Part shown: one piece after another, positions 38,346 through 50,583 of the stretch
Layout of the letters: each line of letters starts with the position of its first letter
How positions within the stretch are numbered: the first letter of the stretch is position 1
Origin: Balneola sp.
GTDB taxonomy: Bacteria; Bacteroidota; Rhodothermia; Balneolales; Balneolaceae
NCBI GenBank assembly: GCA_002720745.1
Contig: PBJO01000008.1
Location: forward strand, 1-56,244
Length of the DNA: 56,244 nt
Direction: 5' to 3'
The notes under the pieces: model-generated
What the model was told of the DNA's origin: nothing
The model's database searches: none
What the model saw: only the letters and a program-made list of their open reading frames with translations
Translations under genes and position numbers: made by a program

Positions 38346-39038
38346 ATGTCATATCCAACCGTTTTATTTTGTAATCCACTCTCTGAAACTTATCAGAATC
38401 ACCTATTGAATACTGCTTCTTTCGATTATGATATAATTAATTTTATATCCTTTAAAGAAGTGCATACAAATGAATGGCTCCCTAAAACTACTCATGATTC
38501 TGAATATTGGGTTTTTACGAGTAAAAAAGCTGTAAAAGCCGTTTTTAAACATCATAACAAACTGAATACACCTAAAACGATATTCTGCGTAGGCCCAAAA
38601 ACAGCTTCTGTTATCAATGATCACGAACTGTCATCTTTGATTTGTTTTCCAAATGAATATAATTCGAAGGCATTAATTGAATTAATACTGGACAGTAACG
38701 CTGACCGAATCACTCATTTTAGAGGCGATTTATCCCCTGAATATCTAGTTAGTATACTAAAAAAGAATGGGCTGAACGCTAAAGGTATTGTTGTCTATAA
38801 AACAGATAAAAGAAAAGAAAAAGTCTCACTAGATCTTTATGACGGATTGGTTTTTATGAGCCCATCAGTAGTCCATGCTTTTCTTGAATCTAACACTCCT
38901 TCGAGTGAGACCCCAATATTTTGTATCGGAAAGACTACCGGTATAGCAGCAACGAAGTCAGGTTTTAATAAGGTGATAGTCACCGATAAAGCAACTTTTG
39001 AACATCTAGTCAAAACTATTGAAGAACACATTCTATGA
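38346..39038 (+). CDS. hemD: Uroporphyrinogen-III synthase
   Basis: HemD closes and inverts ring D of hydroxymethylbilane to uroporphyrinogen III. HemD sequences diverge widely. This 230-aa product is recognised from its place between hemC and hemE, its length, and typical elements: YWVFTSKKAVKAVF near 58-71, KTIFCVGPKTASVI, ITHFRGDLSPEYLV, GIVVYKTDKR and LVFMSPSVVHAFLE. These outline the two alpha/beta lobes of the family. Its last bases overlap the hemE start (ATGA), so translation is coupled. Confidence 0.9.
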   Translation: MSYPTVLFCNPLSETYQNHLLNTASFDYDIINFISFKEVHTNEWLPKTTHDSEYWVFTSKKAVKAVFKHHNKLNTPKTIFCVGPKTASVINDHELSSLICFPNEYNSKALIELILDSNADRITHFRGDLSPEYLVSILKKNGLNAKGIVVYKTDKRKEKVSLDLYDGLVFMSPSVVHAFLESNTPSSETPIFCIGKTTGIAATKSGFNKVIVTDKATFEHLVKTIEEHIL

Positions 39039-40075
39039 ATAAATTTCCTGTTTTACATAATACTTTATTACTAGATACACTTGAGAGTAAAAAGACTCCA
39101 CGCCCTCCTGTTTGGATGATGAGGCAGGCAGGAAGATATTTACCTGAATACATGGAGCTTAGTAAGAAGTATTCTTTTTTTGAGCGCGTTAAAACTCCGG
39201 AACTAGCCTGTGAGATTACACTACAACCAATCGATATAATTGGAACGGATGCAGCCATTTTATTTTCTGATATACTAGTCATTCTGGAATGTCTGGGTAT
39301 AGAAGTCCAACTAAAGCCTGGCCTCGGTCCTTATATCCCTTTTCCTATACGATCCTCAAAGGATATGAACAAGATTAAAATCCATCCTGCTAAAGAATCT
39401 CTTGATTATGTATATAAAGCACTAAGCTTGACTCGCCAGGAGCTCAATGGCCGAGTTCCGCTAATCGGTTTTGCAGGCGGACCTTGGACTCTCTTCTGCT
39501 ATTTGGTGGAGGGACAAGGATCCAAAACTTTTTCTTTGGCAAAACAATTTATTTTTTCGGATCCAAAATCAGCCCATCACGTGCTGCAGATACTTACCAA
39601 TCAGACAATCGAATACTTTCATGAGCAGGTAAAAGCAGGAGCACAGGTCTTACAGATATTTGAATCCTGGGCGGCAGCACTTGGTCCGGACGATTTCATG
39701 ACTCACGCTTACCCCTTTCTAAAACAAATTGTAAATGAGGATTATGGAGTACCTATGATTTTATTTGCTAAGGACGCTGAATGGTGTTATCCAGATTTTC
39801 AAGACGAAGGCGTAAAAGGATTTGGGATCAGCTGGGGATGTACTCCTGAGAATGCTCGTTTTTTAGCCGGAAATAAGACTGTGCAAGGTAACTATGATCC
39901 GTCTAAGCTGATGTCTACGCCCGATATTATAACTAAAGAAGTAACGGAAATGATCGAGCGTTTTGGTACACATCGATTTATCGCCAACTTGGGACATGGT
40001 ATCCTCCCTAATGTTCCTGTAGATAACGCAAGAGCCTTTGTGGAAGCTATAAAAAATTATCAATCTCCCTCATGA
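39035..40075 (+). CDS. hemE: Uroporphyrinogen decarboxylase
   Basis: HemE removes four acetate carboxyls from uroporphyrinogen III to give coproporphyrinogen III, without a cofactor. The 346-aa product carries both signatures: RPPVWMMRQAGRYLPEYM (Arg residues contacting the substrate) and GFAGGPWTLFCYLVEG. The catalytic Asp lies in AAILFSDILVILECLG, and GHGILPNVPVDNA closes the protein. It overlaps hemD and hemF by 4 bp each (ATGA junctions), a tight operon arrangement. Confidence 0.97.
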   Translation: MNKFPVLHNTLLLDTLESKKTPRPPVWMMRQAGRYLPEYMELSKKYSFFERVKTPELACEITLQPIDIIGTDAAILFSDILVILECLGIEVQLKPGLGPYIPFPIRSSKDMNKIKIHPAKESLDYVYKALSLTRQELNGRVPLIGFAGGPWTLFCYLVEGQGSKTFSLAKQFIFSDPKSAHHVLQILTNQTIEYFHEQVKAGAQVLQIFESWAAALGPDDFMTHAYPFLKQIVNEDYGVPMILFAKDAEWCYPDFQDEGVKGFGISWGCTPENARFLAGNKTVQGNYDPSKLMSTPDIITKEVTEMIERFGTHRFIANLGHGILPNVPVDNARAFVEAIKNYQSPS

Positions 40076-41007
40076 AATACTTTGACTCCAAACGGAAAGA
40101 ATTCACGAAACTTATCAAAAAACTCCAGATCAAAATCACCGGAGCTATTGAAAAAGCAGACGGAGAGGCTGAATTTCAAATCGACAACTGGAAGCGAGAA
40201 AAATTTGGGTTTGGGAGTACCCGTATAATTGAAAATGGGAAAGTATTTGAAAAAGGTGGTGTTAATATTTCAGCTGTATTAGGTCCGCTACCTGAAGCCC
40301 TTCAGCAAAGTCTTGATGAGGAAAACTCTGATTTTTTTGCAAGCGGTATATCACTCGTTCTTCATCCCCAAAATCCTTATGTACCTTCCGTTCATGCCAA
40401 CTACCGCTATTTTGAACTCTTTAGTAAAGATTCTAGTGAAATCAAAGACCAGTGGTTCGGAGGCGGAGCTGATCTAACCCCTTATTACCTCTTTAAAGAA
40501 GATGCTGTTCACTTTCACCAAATTCATAAAACAATTTGTGATCTAACTCACCCAGCTTTTTATCCCCGCTTCAAGAAAGCATGTGATGAATATTTTTTCA
40601 ATCATCACCGGAATGAGGCTAGAGGAATAGGCGGTATTTTCTTCGATCACGTGAGGGCAAATGAAGATACTTCTGCACAGGACCTTTGCGAATTTGCCTA
40701 CAATGCAGGCTTGGGATTTATAGATGCCTATATTCCAATTGTTAATCTGAGAAAAGACATCAATTACAATCAGCAAAACCGGGACTGGCAGGAAATCCGA
40801 CGCGGTCGCTATGTAGAATTCAACCTGATCCACGACCGTGGTACCCTATTTGGACTTAAAACAAAAGGGCGAATTGAATCAATTTTAATGAGCCTGCCAC
40901 CTCATGTGCAATGGCGATATAATCATAAGCCCAAACCCGGTTCTAAAGAACAGCAAATGCTTGACCACCTAAAAGAAGTGGACTGGCTTAATCTCCAAAA
41001 TAATTAG
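40072..41007 (+). CDS. hemF: Oxygen-dependent coproporphyrinogen III oxidase
   Basis: HemF uses oxygen to convert the two propionates of coproporphyrinogen III to vinyl groups. The 311-aa product has the family blocks FQIDNWKREKFGFGSTRIIE-like N-terminus, LHPQNPYVPSVHANYRYFEL, WFGGGADLTPYYLFKEDAVH and GIGGIFFDHVRANE, with conserved histidines. RGRYVEFNLIHDRGTLFGL and ESILMSLPPHVQW complete the fold. It overlaps hemE by 4 bp. An aerobic HemF with HemY implies oxygen-dependent heme synthesis; no hemN is in the window. Confidence 0.97.
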   Translation: MKYFDSKRKEFTKLIKKLQIKITGAIEKADGEAEFQIDNWKREKFGFGSTRIIENGKVFEKGGVNISAVLGPLPEALQQSLDEENSDFFASGISLVLHPQNPYVPSVHANYRYFELFSKDSSEIKDQWFGGGADLTPYYLFKEDAVHFHQIHKTICDLTHPAFYPRFKKACDEYFFNHHRNEARGIGGIFFDHVRANEDTSAQDLCEFAYNAGLGFIDAYIPIVNLRKDINYNQQNRDWQEIRRGRYVEFNLIHDRGTLFGLKTKGRIESILMSLPPHVQWRYNHKPKPGSKEQQMLDHLKEVDWLNLQNN

Positions 41008-41014
41008 ACTAAAC

Positions 41015-42001
41015 ATGAGATATCCAGGAACACGTTTAAGACGTAACCGAAAATCTGTAGCAATTAGAAGCATGGTTCGGGAAAATCAACTCAGCCCCGA
41101 TGATTTTATGGTTCCCCTATTTATAACTGAGGGTGAGAATGTGAAAGATGAAATACCCAGTATGCCTGGTTATTTTCGGCATTCACTGGATCGTTTGAAT
41201 TACGAACTGGATGAGATTGCTGAACTGGGAATAAGATCTGTATTGTTGTTTGTAAAGGTACCAAAAGATAAAAAGGACAACAAAGGAACAGAGCCTCTCC
41301 GTGATGACGGCCTTATGCAAAGGGCTATCAAGCATATAAAAGAATATTATCCGGATCTGTTCGTTATATCTGATGTAGCACTCGATCCATATTCATCCCA
41401 TGGCCATGATGGTATTGTGAAGGACAATGAAATAGTAAATGATATCAGTGCCGAATTGCTAGCAAAAATAGCTCTGAGTCATGCAAATGCCGGTGTAGAC
41501 ATGGTCGCACCCTCCGATATGATGGACGGACGTGTAGACTTAATAAGAAAAAAACTGGATCAACACGGATATGAAAATACAGGTATCATGGCATACAGTG
41601 TTAAATATGCCTCTGCTTTTTATGGCCCGTTCCGTGACGCGCTAGATTCAGCACCCGGATTCGGTGACAAAAAAACCTATCAGATGGATCCGGCAAACAG
41701 TAAAGAAGCATTGGTTGAAGCACAGATGGATATACAGGAAGGGGCAGACATTATCATGATCAAACCAGGTCAGCCCTATCTTGATATACTAAAAGCTGTC
41801 AGTGATAAATTAGAAACTCCAGTTTCCGTATATCATGTTTCGGGTGAGTATTCAATGATAAAAGCAGCAGCAGAAAAAGGTTGGTTAAATGAAAATGAGG
41901 TGATAATGGAATCACTGATCTCGTTCAAAAGAGCCGGTGCTAGTTTAATCGTAACATACTTTGCTAAACAGGCAGTCAAATTACTAAATGAAAGTAAATA
42001 G
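41015..42001 (+). CDS. hemB: 5-Aminolevulinate dehydratase (porphobilinogen synthase)
   Basis: HemB condenses two 5-aminolevulinate molecules to porphobilinogen. The 328-aa product has both active-site lysines, Lys197 in YSVKYASAFYGPFRDA and Lys250 in IIMIKPGQPYLDI. The metal loop reads DVALDPYSSHGHDG (120-133). The three cysteines of zinc enzymes are replaced by Ala, Asp and Asp, as in magnesium-dependent HemB of Pseudomonas. It is 7 bp from hemF and is followed at once by hemL. Confidence 0.97.
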   Translation: MRYPGTRLRRNRKSVAIRSMVRENQLSPDDFMVPLFITEGENVKDEIPSMPGYFRHSLDRLNYELDEIAELGIRSVLLFVKVPKDKKDNKGTEPLRDDGLMQRAIKHIKEYYPDLFVISDVALDPYSSHGHDGIVKDNEIVNDISAELLAKIALSHANAGVDMVAPSDMMDGRVDLIRKKLDQHGYENTGIMAYSVKYASAFYGPFRDALDSAPGFGDKKTYQMDPANSKEALVEAQMDIQEGADIIMIKPGQPYLDILKAVSDKLETPVSVYHVSGEYSMIKAAAEKGWLNENEVIMESLISFKRAGASLIVTYFAKQAVKLLNESK

Positions 42002-43300
42002 ATGAATATTAATACGAGTAAAGAACTTTATAAAAAGGCTAAAAATATAATTCCAGGAGGTGTTAATTCACCAGTCAGAGCCTTCAATAGCGTTGGAGGT
42101 TCTCCTTTGTTCATCAGAAAAGCTGAAGGTGCTTACTTATATGATGAAGATGGAAATAAATATATTGATCTGATCAGCTCTTGGGGTCCAATGTTGCTGG
42201 GTCATGCCGATCCTGATGTTTTAAAAGCAGTTACTGAAACGGCCAAAAATTCCACTTCTTTTGGAGCCCCTACTCGACTTGAGATAGAGATTGCAGACCT
42301 AATTACTGATACTATAAAGGGTATTGATAAGATCAGAATGGTTAATTCCGGTACAGAGGCCTGTATGAGTGCAATCCGTATCGCACGCGGTTATACAGGC
42401 AGAGATAAAATTATCAAATTCAAAGGATGTTATCATGGGCACGGTGATTCTTTTCTAATTGAGGCGGGAAGTGGCGCTCTTACAATGGGACATCCCAGTA
42501 GTCCGGGGGTTACACCTGGCACAGCTAGGGATACGCTCATTGCTGAATTCAATGATCTAGATGAGGTTGAAAAATTACTGAAAGCCAATAAAAATAAAGT
42601 TGCAGCCATTATACTGGAACCCATAGCAGGAAATATGGGCTGTATACCTCCTGAAAAAGGTTTTTTAGAAGGACTTCGCTCACTATGTGATGATCATGAT
42701 ACCGTACTAATTTTTGACGAAGTAATGACTGGATTCCGGGTAGCATTTGGCGGAGCACAGGAGATATATGGCATAACAGCAGATATGGTTACCTATGGTA
42801 AAATTATAGGTGCAGGACTTCCAGTAGGAGCTTACGCAGGGAAGAAAGAGATCATGGATTTTGTCGCTCCAACAGGGCCAGTATACCAGGCGGGAACTTT
42901 ATCAGGTAATCCACTGGCGATGGCAGCAGGATACACACTACTCAAGAAATTACATGATAACTTATCGTTATATGATGAACTGGAAGTAAAATCTAAAACT
43001 CTAGAACAAGGACTTAAAAAAGTTTTGGATGACCATTATATCTCGAATTATACAAATCGAGTAGGGTCTATGATTGGAATTTTCTATAGCAATCATAAGG
43101 TGACAGGATTCAAGGGGGCCAATACTACCAACAAAGAGTTATTCAGAAAAATTTTTCACCATATGCTGGAGCGTGGGGTATATCTCCCACCGTCTCCCTT
43201 TGAGGCTTTCTTTTTGTCAAATGCTCTTAAAATTCAAGATATATCATTAATAATTAGTGCGTTTGAAGACTCTATATCATCCATATGCACTAAAAATTGA
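42002..43300 (+). CDS. hemL: Glutamate-1-semialdehyde 2,1-aminomutase
   Basis: HemL is a PLP enzyme that moves the amino group of glutamate-1-semialdehyde to give 5-aminolevulinate. The 432-aa product has the PLP Lys267 in VTYGKIIGAGLPVGAYAG, the cofactor Asp in LIFDEVMTGFRVA, NSGTEACMSAIRIARG and the gate loop GALTMGHPSSPGVTPG. Its ATG follows the hemB stop directly (TAGATG). With HemA it supplies ALA by the C5 route, so no hemA of the ALA-synthase type is needed. No clear terminator follows. Confidence 0.97.
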   Translation: MNINTSKELYKKAKNIIPGGVNSPVRAFNSVGGSPLFIRKAEGAYLYDEDGNKYIDLISSWGPMLLGHADPDVLKAVTETAKNSTSFGAPTRLEIEIADLITDTIKGIDKIRMVNSGTEACMSAIRIARGYTGRDKIIKFKGCYHGHGDSFLIEAGSGALTMGHPSSPGVTPGTARDTLIAEFNDLDEVEKLLKANKNKVAAIILEPIAGNMGCIPPEKGFLEGLRSLCDDHDTVLIFDEVMTGFRVAFGGAQEIYGITADMVTYGKIIGAGLPVGAYAGKKEIMDFVAPTGPVYQAGTLSGNPLAMAAGYTLLKKLHDNLSLYDELEVKSKTLEQGLKKVLDDHYISNYTNRVGSMIGIFYSNHKVTGFKGANTTNKELFRKIFHHMLERGVYLPPSPFEAFFLSNALKIQDISLIISAFEDSISSICTKN

Positions 43301-43714: not shown

Positions 43715-44134
43715 TCAAAATTTAGCTGACGTGAGAGAGTTATTTCTAAATCTATCCTCATCAAAGTTACTGGGTATAGTGCAAACATTTTTTCTGCCAA
43801 AAATTTTGTACCTATTCTTTGAAATTACATCATATAAGTAGTCAGTATATTTTAAAGGAATGAATGAAAGGTAAGAGAGGAATTTAATCGGCGAATTGAT
43901 TTGTTTTAATATTTCAAATACTGCCTCAGATTTTTTATAAAAATTTCCATTTCTATAAAATATAATACTGGTTTCTGTGTTCTCTAATACATTCTCAGGT
44001 AAGGTTAATGTAGCGTAATCCGATTTGGACCAAGAAAATAATAGATTTTTATCGGAATCGTACTTCATCAAGAAATGAAGTAACGCATTACAAAGATTAC
44101 AAAATCCGTCAAAGTATACGATATTATTTTCCAT
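43715..44134 (-). CDS. DCC-family thiol-disulfide oxidoreductase-like protein (DUF393)
   Basis: The 139-aa product opens with NIVYFDGFCNLCNALLHFLM, the YDGxCxxC signature of the DCC family, with Cys12 and Cys15 as a CxxC pair. KYDSDKNLLFSWSKSD and a hydrophobic segment near 95-110 follow in the usual order. DCC proteins are thioredoxin-like and of uncertain function, often found near HTTM proteins; an HTTM gene lies 2.7 kb to the right here. The gene stands alone and diverges from the DUF4856 operon across 160 bp. Confidence 0.85.
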   Translation of the reverse strand: MENNIVYFDGFCNLCNALLHFLMKYDSDKNLLFSWSKSDYATLTLPENVLENTETSIIFYRNGNFYKKSEAVFEILKQINSPIKFLSYLSFIPLKYTDYLYDVISKNRYKIFGRKNVCTIPSNFDEDRFRNNSLTSAKF

Positions 44135-44294
44135 CTATATATAACTGTAAATATTGTATTTAATCCATTAAATTAAAAGGGATATTTTTTTTGTCAATTA
44201 TTTAGAATTAGTCTTGATAAGTATTATATTATATACGTTATCTAGAATAGATCTAAATAGCATACCTTAATTTAATAATAATATTTCAAAAAAA

Positions 44295-45575
44295 ATGAAT
44301 TCACCAATACGACTGTTCACATTATTCATTGCCTTAATTACGCTGAGCTACTGCGGGACTACTAACACAGAAGAAGAAGTAGATAAAGCTGGATTCTTAA
44401 AAAGTAATTTAGGTGATATAAATAGTATCGCCTTAACAAATTTTACTATTCCTTCGTCTTACGATATAGAGGGCACTCTAGCACCTGGAGCTTATAATGG
44501 TCAAAAGCGCCGGTTAGCTCAACTCAAAGAAATTGCTGATTCCTCAAGGAATGAACCAATTAAATGGGACCTAAAAGCAGCTATTGCAAATGAAAACTAT
44601 GATATGTTTAATAGCGCTGATGCACAAGGAGGTTCAAATATTCGTACTAAAATAGATGAATTAAATTTTGATAATGGTAATACTAGTGTAGCTGATAACT
44701 TTGCCACCTTAGCTGATTTACTTGTTCAATCTAGTCAAACAAATTATACGATAGACGCATCAAATGGTACAGCAGGTATGATAACAACTGGTAGTAAAAA
44801 AAGACATGTTAGTGCAAATGGGTTAGAATATGCACAAATACTAGAGAAAGGTCTTTATGGTGCTATGATGTATGATCAAATGGTTGACGACTACCTCAGA
44901 GATTCTCAGGCAGGCAAAGACAATGAACTAGGAAATAATGAATCATCTATTGATAATTATGCATCATATGGTACTAGCCGTCAACACAAATTTGATGAAG
45001 CATTTGGCTACTTTGGTGCAAATGCAGCAACCTACCCAAATACTAGTAATACCTCTAGCGGTGATGGTATGTTTTTGGCAAATTATACTTTTGATTTTAG
45101 CGATGAAACTGAAGAAGCATACGAAGTTAATTTAGCTCAAGCAGCAATGAATGCTTTCATTGTTGGTCGGTCGGTATTAAAAGCAGGTCAAGGCTTTGGA
45201 CCTTCGCAAGAAAGTGTTAATGAAGATTTATTTGTTGCTGCAAGAGCAGACATAAAATTATATGTAGAAGCAGGGTTAGCAGCAGCAGCTATACATTATC
45301 TTAATGATGCGATTGCTGATGTATCTGATGCAGATAAAATACATCACCTATCGGAAGCACTGGCATTTATATATGCAATGTCATTCAATTCAGAAGGTCG
45401 ATTAACAGCCGAAGAAGCTCACAATGCATTAATTGCAATGGGTTGGTCAAGCTCAGATAGTTCATTAAATGGAATCTATGGAATAAATTTGTGGACAGTC
45501 ACTGACGATCAAATGACTTCTGCGATAAACATATTAGATCAATCGTTCCCAGGCTTTAAAGATGCAAATTTCTAA
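44295..45575 (+). CDS. DUF4856 lipoprotein of an iron-acquisition locus
   Basis: The 426-aa precursor has a lipoprotein signal (FIALITLSYC, Cys20). It shows the features of DUF4856: FTIPSSYDIEGTLAPGAYNG, a GLYGAMMYDQMVDDYL helix, DEAFGYFGA and an Ala-rich helical C-terminus. DUF4856 proteins regularly precede imelysin-like proteins and TonB receptors in Bacteroidota and are thought to act in iron uptake on the cell surface. That role is inferred from context. The imelysin gene starts one base after its stop. Confidence 0.85.
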   Translation: MNSPIRLFTLFIALITLSYCGTTNTEEEVDKAGFLKSNLGDINSIALTNFTIPSSYDIEGTLAPGAYNGQKRRLAQLKEIADSSRNEPIKWDLKAAIANENYDMFNSADAQGGSNIRTKIDELNFDNGNTSVADNFATLADLLVQSSQTNYTIDASNGTAGMITTGSKKRHVSANGLEYAQILEKGLYGAMMYDQMVDDYLRDSQAGKDNELGNNESSIDNYASYGTSRQHKFDEAFGYFGANAATYPNTSNTSSGDGMFLANYTFDFSDETEEAYEVNLAQAAMNAFIVGRSVLKAGQGFGPSQESVNEDLFVAARADIKLYVEAGLAAAAIHYLNDAIADVSDADKIHHLSEALAFIYAMSFNSEGRLTAEEAHNALIAMGWSSSDSSLNGIYGINLWTVTDDQMTSAINILDQSFPGFKDANF

Positions 45576-45576
45576 A

Positions 45577-46686
45577 ATGATCGTTGTTAAGTTTAAACGG
45601 TTTCAAGCTCTTCTTCTCTCAGTGTTGTTAGCATGTTTTATTACTAGCTGCGATAACGGAGAAGGAGCTTTGGACCTTAATGGGCAAGATAATCATACTG
45701 AGTTATTAACTAATCAGGTTAATAATGTCATAATCCCATCTATAAGTAATTATCAGGACGCTACTGAAACGTTATACTTATCGGCAAATAATTTCTGTAA
45801 TTCAATAAATGATAGTAATCTAAATAGTTTTAGAGATGCCTATCATAATACCTACAAATCATTTCAGTCTGCAGCTTTGCATAATTATTATGCTAATGTC
45901 AATTATGATCTAGTCAATACAACTAATTTGTTTCCAATTGATACACTATTACTTAAAAATATAATAATATCAAGTACTTACAATTTTTCTTCTGAATCGC
46001 AAAAAAGAGCAAATGGATTCCCTGCTATAGATTATCTCATTTACTCATCTCAGAATTCTATAAGTACATTTGTATCAGATGAAAAAAAATGTTCATATCT
46101 ACTAAAATTGACGGAGTCAATAAAAAATAAAGCTACACAATTAGATGAGATGTGGAGTGGAAGTTTAAAAGAAAATTTCGTTAGTAATGACGGTGTAGAA
46201 ATTGGTAGTTCTATTCATGTTCAACTTAATAGTGCATTATCTTATTATGAAGATCACATAAGAGAAAATAAAGTTGGTTTACCAATTGGAAGAGTAGGTC
46301 CACTAGACTCACCTATAGAGCCTGACCCAACTAAAATTGAGGCCTACTACCAGTCAAAATATAATGGTAATGACTTATTTGCACTATCATTGGTAAAAGA
46401 GTCTATTCAAGAAATGGAAGATTTGTATCTTGGTGGAAATACCTCAAGAGATGATTTAATCAATTCAGGCTATGATAGGCTTTTAATCAGCAGAGGCCAC
46501 ACAGAAGTAGATTCCGATATTAAATCACAATTTGATTTAATTTACACGAAAATTGATGAAAGAACCTCTATAACAGGAAGCACAGATTTATATGATGCTA
46601 TTCAAGGACTGATTACAATACTGAAATCTGATATGTTTCCATTGTTAAACATCCAAGACGCTGATGGTAAAAACGATGGTGATTAG
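45577..46686 (+). CDS. Imelysin-family (IrpA/M75-like) lipoprotein
   Basis: The product is 369 aa from the ATG at 45577, with a lipoprotein signal (LLSVLLACFITSC). An earlier in-frame ATG at 45562 would overlap the previous gene by 14 bp; the later start gives a basic n-region and one-base spacing. Imelysin features are NNVIIPSISNYQDATETLYL, AYHNTYKSFQSAAL and the FPAIDYLIYSS element, where the classical GxHxxE motif is replaced. IGRVGPLDSP and the C-terminal helices also fit. Such proteins bind iron or iron complexes; a true peptidase role is unlikely. A hairpin follows the gene. Confidence 0.87.
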   Translation: MIVVKFKRFQALLLSVLLACFITSCDNGEGALDLNGQDNHTELLTNQVNNVIIPSISNYQDATETLYLSANNFCNSINDSNLNSFRDAYHNTYKSFQSAALHNYYANVNYDLVNTTNLFPIDTLLLKNIIISSTYNFSSESQKRANGFPAIDYLIYSSQNSISTFVSDEKKCSYLLKLTESIKNKATQLDEMWSGSLKENFVSNDGVEIGSSIHVQLNSALSYYEDHIRENKVGLPIGRVGPLDSPIEPDPTKIEAYYQSKYNGNDLFALSLVKESIQEMEDLYLGGNTSRDDLINSGYDRLLISRGHTEVDSDIKSQFDLIYTKIDERTSITGSTDLYDAIQGLITILKSDMFPLLNIQDADGKNDGD

Positions 46687-46786
46687 TTAAATAGTTAGTT
46701 GGAGAAATAAACTATATTCTTTACATAACCACGTCCCTAATAGAAGACTATTAGTTAGTTAAACAATATACGATGACCTAATCGTT

Positions 46787-46820
46787 AAGACGTCTATCTT
46801 GAAAAATAGGCGTTTTCTTT
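46787..46820 (+). terminator. Hairpin with T-rich tail between imelysin and HTTM
   Basis: AAGACGTCTAT (46787-46797) pairs with ATAGGCGTTTT (46806-46816) over 11 bp with two G-T pairs and an 8-nt loop. The tail CTTT follows. It looks like an intrinsic terminator, but lies only 16 nt before the HTTM start codon, so it may attenuate rather than end transcription. Confidence 0.5.
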
Positions 46821-46832
46821 AAATATTGCAAA

Positions 46833-48170
46833 ATGCTAGCAGAGACTTTTAATAAATTAATAAATAAATCATTTGAAACAACAGATATTTCGCCCCTAAT
46901 AACGTTCCGAATATTTTTTGGGGTAACTCTATTTATAACTATTCTGCGATTTTGGATAAATGGTTGGATCGAAGAACTCTACATAAGCCCGGAATATCAT
47001 TTTAATTTTATTCCCAACATAGATTTTTTACCTGATGTTAGTGTGTATATAATATTCACAATTCTTTTAATTTTATCTATATTTATAACATGTGGCGCAT
47101 TTTATCGTACTAGTACAGCCTCCTTTTTTTTGCTTTTCACATATATAGAATTGATTGATAAAACGTATTATCTCAATCATTATTATCTTGTTTCAATACT
47201 TACCTTCTATCTAATATTTCTACCTGCAAATCGAGCGTTTTCTATAGATTGTTATTTTAATCCCTTATTAAAATCGAATCTATGTTCAAAATGGCACATA
47301 ACTTTAATCAAATGCCAACTCTCAATAGTTTATTTTTATGCAGGTTTAGCAAAAATTAATACAGACTGGCTCATAAAAGCTCAGCCACTTTATACATGGC
47401 TACCTGGTAAATTTAGTATACCAATTATAGGCAAATTCACTCATTTAAAAATCACAGCATTATTATTCAGCTGGGTCGGTTGCATTTATGATTTAACCAT
47501 TTGGCTCTTTTTGTGGATCAAAAAAACGCGAAAATATGCATTTTATGCAGTCATTGTGTTTCATGTAATGACAGGCATACTTTTCCCAAGAATTGGAATG
47601 TTTCCGATGATAATGATTGCAGCTACTACAATCTTTTTACCGTTAAATTTCCACAATAAATGCTTAGAGTTATTATCAATAAAAAAACGTGAAATTAAAT
47701 CAGAGCGTATAAATAGAAAAAAGAAAAAAAATATTCTTTTTGTATACTATTTGATGGTTTTATTCCTAGGTATTCAGGTTCTAATGCCACTCAGGCATCA
47801 TATTTTTTCTAATAACATTTATTGGGATGAAATTGGCTATCGATTTAGTTGGAGGGTCATGCTTATGGAAAAAAATGGCTATACAAATATAGTAGTTATT
47901 GATCCACGTAAAGAAATACAATATCAATTAGATCAAGACTTATATCTAAGTAAATTTCAACAACAACAAATGAAATCACAACCTGATATGATTATCCAAT
48001 TTGTCAATTACATAGGAGATCAATTCAAAGACATTAATGGATACCCACCAGTAATTAATATTCATAGTAGAATGTCTCTAAATGGAAGAAAAAGTCAACC
48101 ATTTTTCATTGATACTGTAAATGTATACAAAAATAATTCTGACAAATTTCTACATGATTTTAAATCTTAG
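46833..48170 (+). CDS. HTTM-domain membrane protein (vitamin K-dependent carboxylase-related)
   Basis: The 445-aa product has about eight membrane helices in the HTTM pattern. The signature LIDKTYYLNHYYLVSILTFY (about 107-126) resembles the DKT...NH segment of vitamin K-dependent gamma-carboxylase, whose catalytic residues lie in this region; here Lys110 and His116 are the matching candidates. AGLAKINTDWL and YDLTIWLFLW also fit. After about residue 290 a basic linker leads to a further helix and a soluble C-terminal domain. The substrate is unknown; position suggests modification or assembly of the neighbouring iron-uptake proteins. Local base composition is notably AT-rich. Confidence 0.85.
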   Translation: MLAETFNKLINKSFETTDISPLITFRIFFGVTLFITILRFWINGWIEELYISPEYHFNFIPNIDFLPDVSVYIIFTILLILSIFITCGAFYRTSTASFFLLFTYIELIDKTYYLNHYYLVSILTFYLIFLPANRAFSIDCYFNPLLKSNLCSKWHITLIKCQLSIVYFYAGLAKINTDWLIKAQPLYTWLPGKFSIPIIGKFTHLKITALLFSWVGCIYDLTIWLFLWIKKTRKYAFYAVIVFHVMTGILFPRIGMFPMIMIAATTIFLPLNFHNKCLELLSIKKREIKSERINRKKKKNILFVYYLMVLFLGIQVLMPLRHHIFSNNIYWDEIGYRFSWRVMLMEKNGYTNIVVIDPRKEIQYQLDQDLYLSKFQQQQMKSQPDMIIQFVNYIGDQFKDINGYPPVINIHSRMSLNGRKSQPFFIDTVNVYKNNSDKFLHDFKS

Positions 48171-50583
48171 AATCTTAGTTTTTTTTGCTACTCTATTTAT
48201 TTGGCAAAATAATTATATCTACTCTCAAGAGTTCATTTTGTCAGGTAAAGTTCAAGATACCTCAGGCAACCATCTACCAGACATTGTTATATATTCTAAT
48301 CAAATTAATCAATATTCAATTAGTGATAGTTTAGGCAATTTTGAATTTATTTATAAGAAACCAAGCCTTGTTAAATTATATGCGAGCGGACTAAATATAA
48401 TTCCAGATAGTATAACTGTTGATTTAACAACAACAACAAACATTATATTTATAGTAAATTTCAAATCTGTTGAATTATCTGAAATTACTATTCGTAACCA
48501 AAATAGTATTTATGATACTCGATTCCTTAGATCAGTGGAGAATTTTGGTATTTATGAAGCAAAAAAATCTGATGTTATCAACCTTGAGGATTTAGTTGTA
48601 AATAAATCAAATAACAATGCCCGACAAATTTACAGTAAAGTAACAAGTATAAATATATGGGAAAGTGATTATTTTGGATTGCAACTTGATATTGGAGGAA
48701 GAGGTCTAAGCCCAAATAGATCTTCAAATTTTAATACACGACAAAATAACTACGAAATTAGTGCTGATCCTTTAGGTTATCCCGAGAGTTATTACACCCC
48801 CCCCTCTCAAGCAGTAAATCAGATTCAACTAGTAAGGGGTGCAGGTGCGCTGCAATATGGAACACAATTTGGTGGATTACTAAATTTCATAATGAAAGAC
48901 GGAGAAAATAGTGATCCTATTAATATAGAATTATCACAAAGCTATGACAATCATGGTACATTTAGTTCATACAATAGTCTATACGGTGGGACAAAGAAAC
49001 TAAATTATTTTCTTTACATACAACATAAAAAAGGTGACGGTTGGAGAGAAAATTCAAGTATCAAACAATATGGCTTCTATACTTCCATAAATTACAGATT
49101 AGGGCAAAGATTTCGCATATATCTTGACTTTACACATATGAATTATGTTAGTCAGCAACCTGGTGGACTTACTGATGAGAATTTCTATATAAATCCAAAA
49201 TTATCCAACAGAAAACGAAATTGGTTCAATGTAAATTGGAATCTTTATTCAAATAAAATTGAATATTCTCCCTTGAATAGATTAAAGATAAATAATATAA
49301 CATATGGACTGATTGCTAGTAGGAAATCGATAGGATTATTAGATGATCCTACGGTCATAGATAATATTGGTAATCGCGACTTATTACATGGTAGTTTTGA
49401 TAATCTTGGAATCGAAACACGTATTCAATACGATATACCTCTAAAAAATAATTTAAATAACACAATTCTATTGGGTTCAAAAATTTATAGAGGTGAAACC
49501 AACTTCAAACAAGCAATAGGTAGCGCTGGTTATGACGCAGATTTTAGTGAGTTAGATACAACAATCTTTTCAAAACCAAAATCTGATTTTAAATTTCCTA
49601 ACTATAACAATGCAATATTTCTAGAGTCTGTCATTAGATTAAATAATAAAATAAGTTTTGTGCCAGGATTCAGATATGAACATATTAAAACCGAATCAAA
49701 TGGTTATTATACATACAATAAAAAAATAAATAGTTTTGAAGATTTTGTAGAGGAAATTATAAGAGATACTCTATCTGAAAATCGGAGAATATTCATATAT
49801 GGGATTGGCTTGTCCATTAGAAATAATTTGTTTACTGAATTTTATGCTAATGCAACATCGAACTATCGTGCTATAAACTTCTCAGATATTCAAATTCAAA
49901 CGAAAACACAAATCGTAGATAAAGAGATAAAGGATGAATCGGGATATACCATTGATATAGGAATGAGAAAAGATAACCAATTGCTATCAAAGTATGATAT
50001 CTCTCTTTTTTACACACGGTATTCTAACAAAATTGGAGACATAATTGATGACGGACTTCGAGTGAGAACAAATATTGGGTCAGCACAAATTTTTGGTTTA
50101 GAATTTCATTATGAAAAAAATTTAAGCACATCTAATATCCTTAACAGATTCGATGCATTTAATTTTTATTTAAATGGATCAATTAACCGGGGAAGATATG
50201 TAGAAATTAATGATAGGCAACAATCATTCGTTAGTAGTGGTAATTATATTGAAGAAATACCTAAATATATTTTAAAGACAGGAATTTATATTTTGAAAAA
50301 CAAAATGGCGTTCAGTTTACAATCACAGTTTACAGGACTTCAATTTTCAGATGCAGCAAATACCGACGAATCTACTCAGGGTATATATGGAATAATACCA
50401 GATTATTATGTGATTGATGTTTCATATGAATATACGATTAATGATTATTTAACTCTTCATTTAGACATCAATAATATGACCAATAATTACTTCTTTACTA
50501 GAAGAGCATCCGCATATCCTGGACCAGGCATTATACCCGCTGCTAATCGTACATTAAATTTCACACTTATAATGACATTTTAA
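48154..50583 (+). CDS. TonB-dependent outer-membrane receptor, FecA-like
   Basis: Starting at the ATG at 48154, the 809-aa product has a signal peptide (LRILVFFATLFIWQNNYIYSQ), a carboxypeptidase-regulatory-like domain (about 28-110), a plug and a 22-strand-type barrel. The plug includes LQLDIGGRGLSPNRSSNF and VNQIQLVRGAGALQYGTQFG. The barrel ends in the aromatic-rich LNFTLIMTF. An ATG at 48121 would put 11 polar residues before the signal, so I reject it. The gene overlaps the HTTM gene by 17 bp. With imelysin and DUF4856 beside it, a ferric-chelate substrate such as citrate is likely but not shown. The gene is AT-rich. Confidence 0.9.
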   Translation: MILNLRILVFFATLFIWQNNYIYSQEFILSGKVQDTSGNHLPDIVIYSNQINQYSISDSLGNFEFIYKKPSLVKLYASGLNIIPDSITVDLTTTTNIIFIVNFKSVELSEITIRNQNSIYDTRFLRSVENFGIYEAKKSDVINLEDLVVNKSNNNARQIYSKVTSINIWESDYFGLQLDIGGRGLSPNRSSNFNTRQNNYEISADPLGYPESYYTPPSQAVNQIQLVRGAGALQYGTQFGGLLNFIMKDGENSDPINIELSQSYDNHGTFSSYNSLYGGTKKLNYFLYIQHKKGDGWRENSSIKQYGFYTSINYRLGQRFRIYLDFTHMNYVSQQPGGLTDENFYINPKLSNRKRNWFNVNWNLYSNKIEYSPLNRLKINNITYGLIASRKSIGLLDDPTVIDNIGNRDLLHGSFDNLGIETRIQYDIPLKNNLNNTILLGSKIYRGETNFKQAIGSAGYDADFSELDTTIFSKPKSDFKFPNYNNAIFLESVIRLNNKISFVPGFRYEHIKTESNGYYTYNKKINSFEDFVEEIIRDTLSENRRIFIYGIGLSIRNNLFTEFYANATSNYRAINFSDIQIQTKTQIVDKEIKDESGYTIDIGMRKDNQLLSKYDISLFYTRYSNKIGDIIDDGLRVRTNIGSAQIFGLEFHYEKNLSTSNILNRFDAFNFYLNGSINRGRYVEINDRQQSFVSSGNYIEEIPKYILKTGIYILKNKMAFSLQSQFTGLQFSDAANTDESTQGIYGIIPDYYVIDVSYEYTINDYLTLHLDINNMTNNYFFTRRASAYPGPGIIPAANRTLNFTLIMTF

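What the first reader, a model, noticed from the sequence alone, without database searches (positions are those of the whole stretch)
44295..50583. DUF4856-imelysin-HTTM-TonB receptor locus with a carboxylase-like membrane protein
Seen: four genes with 1-bp spacing or overlap, apart from the 146-bp gap before HTTM. The HTTM protein keeps a DKT...NH segment like vitamin K-dependent carboxylase. Inferred: an iron-uptake system in which the HTTM protein chemically modifies or assembles the surface proteins. The function of HTTM here has no established explanation that I know.
Basis: partly seen in the sequence, partly recalled or inferred. Interest (0 to 1): 0.6.

Follow-up and report, generated by a model that had tools for sequence, protein, structure and literature searches.

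The report
Vitamin-K-carboxylase-like enzyme in iron-uptake operon
A marine bacterium of the Bacteroidota group carries an iron-controlled set of four genes that includes a close cousin of the human vitamin K enzyme that activates clotting factors, with its catalytic residues intact; comparing hundreds of genomes points to one neighbouring protein, an imelysin implicated in iron handling, as its partner, which nobody appears to have tested.

Summary
DUF4856, imelysin, HTTM and TonB receptor genes occur in this order in 74 of the 80 named loci most like it; four of the six exceptions are cut contigs. The HTTM protein carries the VKGC lumenal domain, models onto human gamma-glutamyl carboxylase (GGCX) residues 41-507 (Z 32), and keeps catalytic Lys218 and His160 in 109 of 109 operon homologues. 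It lacks the C-terminal propeptide-binding part of GGCX and Lys217. Two Fur-box-like sites lie upstream; most relatives have them, and the Riemerella operon is published as Fur-regulated. The receptor's nearest solved structure is FecA. New here: across 394 genomes the enzyme tracks one kind of imelysin, the Psychrobacter (3pf0) type whose chain ends in -Asp-Gly-Asp. All 71 genomes with it have the enzyme; none of 16 with only other imelysins do. Persicobacter has the pair without DUF4856 or this receptor. I propose that the enzyme, using menaquinol and O2, carboxylates acidic residues of this imelysin in the periplasm. Substrate and reaction are inferred. Alphaproteobacterial DGD-tailed imelysins with no HTTM on the same replicon show that the tail does not require the enzyme.

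The parts
44200..44218 (+). Fur-box-like site 1 (ATTTAGAATTAGTCTTGAT, 16/19 to the Riemerella Fur box)
   Evidence: consensus from PMC5609570
44240..44258 (-). Fur-box-like site 2 (ATTTAGATCTATTCTAGAT, 16/19)
   Evidence: similar sites upstream of the operon in most named relatives
44295..45575 (+). DUF4856 lipoprotein (lipobox Cys20; conserved K185, Y264, Y335, H350, E354)
   Evidence: model pLDDT 83 without a convincing fold match
45562..46686 (+). Imelysin, IPPA-like (GxPxxD in place of GxHxxE), lipobox Cys30, C-terminal Asp-Gly-Asp
46675..46683 (+). Codons of the conserved C-terminal Asp-Gly-Asp of the imelysin
46833..48170 (+). VKGC-type HTTM membrane enzyme (445 aa); catalytic H116 at 47178-47180 and K174 at 47352-47354
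48121..50583 (+). FecA-like TonB-dependent receptor with CarboxypepD_reg-like N-terminal segment

Best explanation
This is a Fur-controlled iron-acquisition operon of Bacteroidota that includes a catalytically intact, menaquinol-using relative of vitamin K-dependent gamma-carboxylase. Low iron lifts Fur repression from the two upstream sites (regulation of this operon published for Riemerella; inferred here from the sites). The FecA-like receptor and the DUF4856 lipoprotein take up a ferric chelate at the outer membrane (inferred). The VKGC-like enzyme sits in the inner membrane with its active site facing the periplasm (inferred from GGCX topology). It uses Lys174 to deprotonate menaquinol, O2 to make the strong base, and His116/Asn115 to hold a substrate carboxylate. 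Its substrate is most likely the exported IPPA-type imelysin: one or more conserved Glu, or Asp of the flexible C-terminal -DGD tail, is carboxylated to give a malonate-like iron or docking ligand. Shown: gene order, catalytic residues, fold, upstream sites, and genome-wide pairing of the enzyme with the DGD-tailed imelysin. Inferred: orientation of the active site, substrate, reaction and purpose.
For: Order DUF4856-imelysin-VKGC-receptor in 74 of 80 named loci and across many families of the phylum. VKGC E 1.8e-27 to human GGCX as a single sequence and 3e-68 as a profile; model pLDDT 90, Z 32.3 over 433 residues. Human K218, H160, N159, W223, F286 and F299 invariant in 109/109, and F294 and G259 in 107/109; these residues are the catalytic base, hold the Glu and line the menaquinol pocket in GGCX (PMC12589487). 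menA in the own genome. Upstream 19-mer within 4 mismatches of the Fur box in 64 of 78 operons, against 10 of 390 shuffles and 1 of 77 regions upstream of VKGC. Riemerella operon (receptor, VKGC, imelysin, hypothetical) listed as Fur-regulated under iron restriction (PMC5609570). DGD-type imelysin implies VKGC in 71/71 genomes; 0/16 for genomes with other imelysins only. The pair persists in other settings: Persicobacter ICMP-DUF1111-imelysin(DGD)-VKGC (L180), a second locus in G257 (L185), and unlinked in G108, which lacks DUF4856 and a receptor match. G109 has DUF4856 and the receptor but neither VKGC nor imelysin. The tail is disordered in the crystal of a relative (3pf0, PMC3143127).
Against: No modified residue has been observed. 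DGD-tailed imelysins of Shinella and Sinorhizobium lie on replicons without any HTTM, so the tail does not need the enzyme. The propeptide-binding C-terminal part of GGCX is missing (human 508-758), Lys217 is Ala, and Asn158 and Arg436, which hold the Glu backbone, are Leu and mostly Gln. No VKOR in the own genome and no association of VKOR with the operon, so epoxide recycling by the known route is not supported. One locus (L077) keeps VKGC with the receptor while imelysin and DUF4856 lie in a separate place. The genome counts are not corrected for shared ancestry.
Confidence: 0.42

Rival explanations
1. The enzyme acts on the imported chelate or siderophore, not on a protein: it carboxylates or oxidises a polycarboxylate ligand (for example citrate-like) in the periplasm so that iron is released.
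For: The receptor is FecA-like. VKGC and receptor genes overlap in most loci and stay together in L077. The protein-recognition part of GGCX is missing and the linker near the pocket carries invariant positive residues R321, R337, R341 and K347.
Against: VKGC occurs with the DGD imelysin but without this receptor at the Persicobacter locus and in the genome G108. R321 and R337 are also kept in the ribF-linked VKGC group, so they are not specific. By my reading of the alignment only one of the recalled FecA citrate ligands (Arg365, aligned with R401) is kept.
Confidence: 0.2
2. The enzyme carboxylates or otherwise modifies the receptor or the DUF4856 lipoprotein rather than the imelysin.
For: Strict operon; gene overlap with the receptor; many invariant acidic residues in the receptor and E354 in DUF4856.
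Against: DUF4856 and a related receptor occur without VKGC in G109, and DUF4856 without VKGC in G128; VKGC persists without either in G108 and at the Persicobacter locus.
Confidence: 0.13
3. The protein keeps the vitamin K chemistry only as a quinol oxidase or base generator and does no carboxylation: its role is redox (menaquinol/O2) in iron reduction or oxidation with the imelysin, in the place of the di-heme DUF1111 partner of other imelysin operons.
For: Imelysins usually sit with a redox protein (EfeB or DUF1111; PMC3143127). VKGC is the only candidate redox enzyme in the four-gene operon. Glu-backbone contacts of GGCX are not kept.
Against: His160 and Asn159, which hold the Glu side chain, are invariant. 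In Persicobacter a DUF1111-like gene and VKGC are both present, so one does not simply replace the other.
Confidence: 0.15
4. Plain operon hitch-hiking: VKGC has a general envelope role and its place in the iron operon is historical.
For: HTTM/VKGC proteins occur in other contexts, such as next to ribF and a DCC1-like gene on a Paracoccus plasmid.
Against: Genome-wide pairing with one imelysin type, also when unlinked or in other operons; operon-type VKGCs share private residues such as R39, E106, D109 and E346.
Confidence: 0.1

Closest known systems
Vitamin K-dependent gamma-glutamyl carboxylase (GGCX, human)
   Same: PF05090 + PF22777, full-length fold over human 41-507, catalytic Lys218, His160, Asn159 and the menaquinol pocket
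   Different: Lacks human residues 508-758 (half of the propeptide-binding domain and the arch); Lys217, Asn158, Asp220, Met401, His404 and Arg436 replaced; no VKOR in the genome; substrate unknown
Riemerella anatipestifer RAYM_09794-RAYM_09779 (Fur regulon, PMC5609570)
   Same: Receptor, 'vitamin K-dependent gamma-carboxylase', imelysin and a hypothetical gene in adjacent locus tags; Fur-regulated under iron restriction
   Different: Published only as table rows; the operon, the enzyme and a mechanism are not discussed there as far as I searched
[quoted passage not shown] PMC3143127)
   Same: Contains the IPPA/PA4372-type imelysin; iron-regulated
   Different: There with a GxHxxE imelysin and a di-heme DUF1111 protein; here with DUF4856, VKGC and a FecA-like receptor
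FecA, ferric dicitrate receptor
   Same: Best solved relative of the receptor (7e-40 as a profile), including the RGL plug region and PGGL motif
   Different: Low identity; most recalled citrate ligands not aligned; ligand unknown

Membership tests
HTTM/VKGC superfamily (PF05090 with PF22777) | HTTM domain and VKGC lumenal domain above the gathering scores | tested here: met
   231 and 131 bits against cut-offs of 27.7
HTTM/VKGC superfamily (PF05090 with PF22777) | Catalytic Lys (K218) and His (H160) | tested here: met
   K174 and H116, invariant in 109/109
HTTM/VKGC superfamily (PF05090 with PF22777) | GGCX fold of membrane and lumenal core | tested here: met
   Z 32.3, rmsd 3.2, 433 residues, human 41-507
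GGCX proper (vertebrate-type carboxylase) | Second half of the propeptide-binding domain (exosite) and arch | tested here: not met
   Protein is 445 aa and its model ends at human residue 507
GGCX proper (vertebrate-type carboxylase) | Carboxylation of Glu to Gla with vitamin K epoxidation | not testable with these tools
   Needs an enzyme assay
Imelysin superfamily, IPPA/PA4372 type | Imelysin domain with GxxxxE in place of GxHxxE | tested here: met
   PF09375 58.7 bits; G152-F-P-A-I-D157, with Glu replaced by Asp in the window copy; best single-sequence PDB match 3pf0
Imelysin superfamily, IPPA/PA4372 type | C-terminal DGD, as in 3pf0 | tested here: met
   Window ends KNDGD; 74 of 79 named operon copies end DGD, 4 DSD
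EfeUOB iron transporter | EfeU permease and EfeB peroxidase with the imelysin EfeO | tested here: not met
   Neither in the operon
FecA ferric dicitrate receptor | Citrate-binding residues | tested here: inconclusive
   Arg365 aligned with R401; others not aligned; ligand list recalled from memory
Fur regulon | Fur box upstream | tested here: met
   Two sites within 3 mismatches; 3 such matches in the whole 56 kb window, 0.26 expected; binding not tested

The most novel reading that the evidence does not exclude
Bacteroidota carry out vitamin-K-type protein carboxylation: a menaquinol-dependent enzyme adds CO2 to Glu, or to Asp of the C-terminal -Asp-Gly-Asp, of an imelysin and so makes a malonate-type iron-binding site under iron starvation. 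This would be a physiological role for a bacterial vitamin K carboxylase and a second use of menaquinone besides respiration in these cells.
Probability: 0.3. Interest if true: 0.87.

Novelty: new variant of a known kind. Interest (0 to 1): 0.62.

Why it matters
What bacterial relatives of the vitamin K carboxylase do is, as far as I know, open. Here the enzyme has an intact active site, a regulated operon, a small set of candidate substrates and one favoured partner, in hundreds of genomes that include culturable flavobacteria. A simple mass-spectrometry comparison could give the enzyme its first bacterial substrate and say why imelysins, also of unknown biochemistry, are tied to iron.

Tried and rejected
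DUF4856 as a distant imelysin: profile comparison matched only the signal peptides, PDB profile search gave nothing convincing, Foldseek no match below E 1.7, VIA best Z 8.2 to catenin/vinculin bundles, within what helical bundles give by chance; no relative is claimed or excluded. VKOR as the recycling partner: no association. The DCC1-like neighbour as a conserved part: found only in the near-identical relative L072 among the named loci, so not counted as part. The DGD tail as a mark of VKGC dependence: rejected as a general rule because alphaproteobacterial copies have it on replicons without HTTM. Paper searches for imelysin with HTTM or DUF4856 gave no discussion of the operon. A VKGC-imelysin complex prediction could not be run. 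L145, which has no receptor hit downstream, was not followed.

Full report
Observation. The HTTM protein holds not only the HTTM domain but also the VKGC lumenal domain, so it belongs to the vitamin K carboxylase branch of HTTM proteins. A search with the single sequence against the PDB returns only GGCX entries, at 1.8e-27. The genome is 2.17 Mb and holds one PF05090 match, this one. The nearest named relative is a Balneola MAG with a 96% identical protein, so the window is probably from the Balneolaceae.

Is it more than chance? In 198 genomes of the phylum, DUF4856 and the VKGC lumenal domain co-occur in 31 of 33 DUF4856 genomes against 15 of 165 others. Gene maps show the same order, DUF4856-imelysin-VKGC-receptor, across many families (two high-GC loci that the first gene map missed are resolved). 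In the 80 named loci nearest to the window protein, 74 have all four; four of the other six are cut by contig ends, L077 is split, and L145 lacks a receptor hit. These 80 were chosen by similarity to the window's VKGC, so they are not a random sample. The VKGC and receptor genes overlap or abut in 84% of loci (first possible start codons).

Regulation. Two 19-mers within three mismatches of the Riemerella Fur box lie 36-95 bp before the DUF4856 start. In 78 operons the best upstream site is within four mismatches in 64, against 10 of 390 shuffles and 1 of 77 for the region before VKGC. In Riemerella the adjacent locus tags for receptor, 'vitamin K-dependent gamma-carboxylase', imelysin and a hypothetical protein are listed as Fur-regulated under iron restriction (PMC5609570). 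Fur binding at the window sites was not tested.

The enzyme. The residue numbering of human GGCX was recovered from the PDB alignment, and the twenty positions checked matched the residues named in the structure paper. Human K218 (base for vitamin K hydroquinone), H160 and N159 (Glu side chain), W223, F286 and F299 are invariant in 109 of 109 operon proteins; F294 and G259 in 107. Replaced throughout or nearly so are K217 (Ala), N158 (Leu), D220 (Asn), M401 (Val), H404 (mostly Met) and R436 (mostly Gln); in GGCX, K217 and the cap contacts couple substrate binding, and N158/R436 hold the peptide backbone. The model (pLDDT 90) superposes on GGCX 41-507 with Z 32; human 508-758 has no counterpart. 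So the chemical core is kept and the recognition of the vertebrate propeptide is not. The own genome has menA and no VKOR.

The partner. Imelysins of the operon are of the IPPA type: 3pf0 is the only convincing single-sequence match, the GxHxxE motif is replaced, and the chain ends in Asp-Gly-Asp in nearly all. In 3pf0 the last six residues are disordered. In 394 genomes, 71 have an imelysin matching this profile to its last position, and all 71 have a VKGC lumenal domain; 16 genomes have other imelysins only, and none has VKGC; ten have VKGC without such an imelysin, and those looked at are of a different VKGC group, mostly next to ribF. Matching to the last profile position is a proxy for the tail; the tail itself was read in the fetched loci. 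Most of these genomes inherit the pair in one operon, so the Fisher value (7e-68) overstates independence. The telling cases are the exceptions. Persicobacter has GxHxxE imelysin-DUF1111-like-DGD imelysin-VKGC with overlapping last genes and neither DUF4856 nor this receptor there (L180). G257 has a second locus with a GxHxxE-type imelysin fragment, a DGD-type imelysin, VKGC and a different receptor (L185). G108 has the DGD imelysin in a GxHxxE/DUF1111-like operon and an operon-type VKGC elsewhere, with no DUF4856 or receptor match. G109 has DUF4856 and the receptor without VKGC or imelysin. The system therefore looks like two modules, VKGC with imelysin and DUF4856 with receptor; L077 is the one case that divides otherwise. 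DUF1111 in these loci was recognised by gene position, length and C-terminal sequence, not by a profile search.

Mechanism. The most likely reading is that menaquinol, O2 and Lys174 make the strong base known from GGCX, and that an acidic side chain of the imelysin is carboxylated in the periplasm, giving a malonate-type ligand for iron or for docking. Conserved candidates are E230, E260 and the two Asp of the tail. This is inference. Against the tail as an obligatory substrate stand Shinella and Sinorhizobium, whose imelysins end in DGD on replicons without HTTM. I give the whole chain 0.42, of which the iron-operon and intact-enzyme parts are near certain, the imelysin partnership perhaps 0.65, and carboxylation of it about 0.35-0.4.

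Receptor and DUF4856. The receptor profile finds FecA first by a wide margin, so a carboxylate chelate is a fair guess; the ligand is unknown. DUF4856 is a lipoprotein with near-invariant H350/E354 and no recognised fold.

Known or new. The families are known, and the operon appears in a published Fur regulon table; I found no paper that discusses it as a system. The pairing of VKGC with DGD-type imelysins and the module analysis seem new. I rate it a new variant of a known kind: a member of the VKGC superfamily, not a GGCX in the strict sense.

Noticed in passing
window 43715-44134 (-): DCC1-like thiol-disulfide oxidoreductase gene divergent from the operon, sharing the region with the Fur-box-like sites; a DUF393 (same family, by name) gene is also divergent from a VKGC-type HTTM gene on a Paracoccus albus plasmid (L179), though the arrangement is not kept among the 80 named loci.
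   Followed up: partly
L052-L058: A second group of VKGC-type proteins in Bacteroidota genomes, directly downstream of ribF (FAD synthetase/riboflavin kinase) in seven loci, with the catalytic Lys/His kept but Tyr395 as His; function unknown.
   Followed up: partly
L182:4863-5993 and L184:4878-6005: Alphaproteobacterial IPPA-type imelysins end in FADGD and follow a GxHxxE imelysin and a DUF1111-like protein; a fully conserved C-terminal tail in a family of unknown biochemistry.
   Followed up: partly
L156, L157, L176: DUF4856 occurs without VKGC or imelysin in two genomes (G109, G128), in G128 next to a distantly related TonB receptor.
   Followed up: partly
window 39035-43300 (+): Genes that read as hemE, hemF, hemB and hemL lie directly upstream of the region, so iron uptake and haem synthesis are neighbours here; a hemL-like gene also lies near the imelysin operon of L154.
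   Followed up: no
L145: Chitinophaga chungangae locus with DUF4856, imelysin and VKGC but no receptor hit downstream although the contig continues.
   Followed up: no
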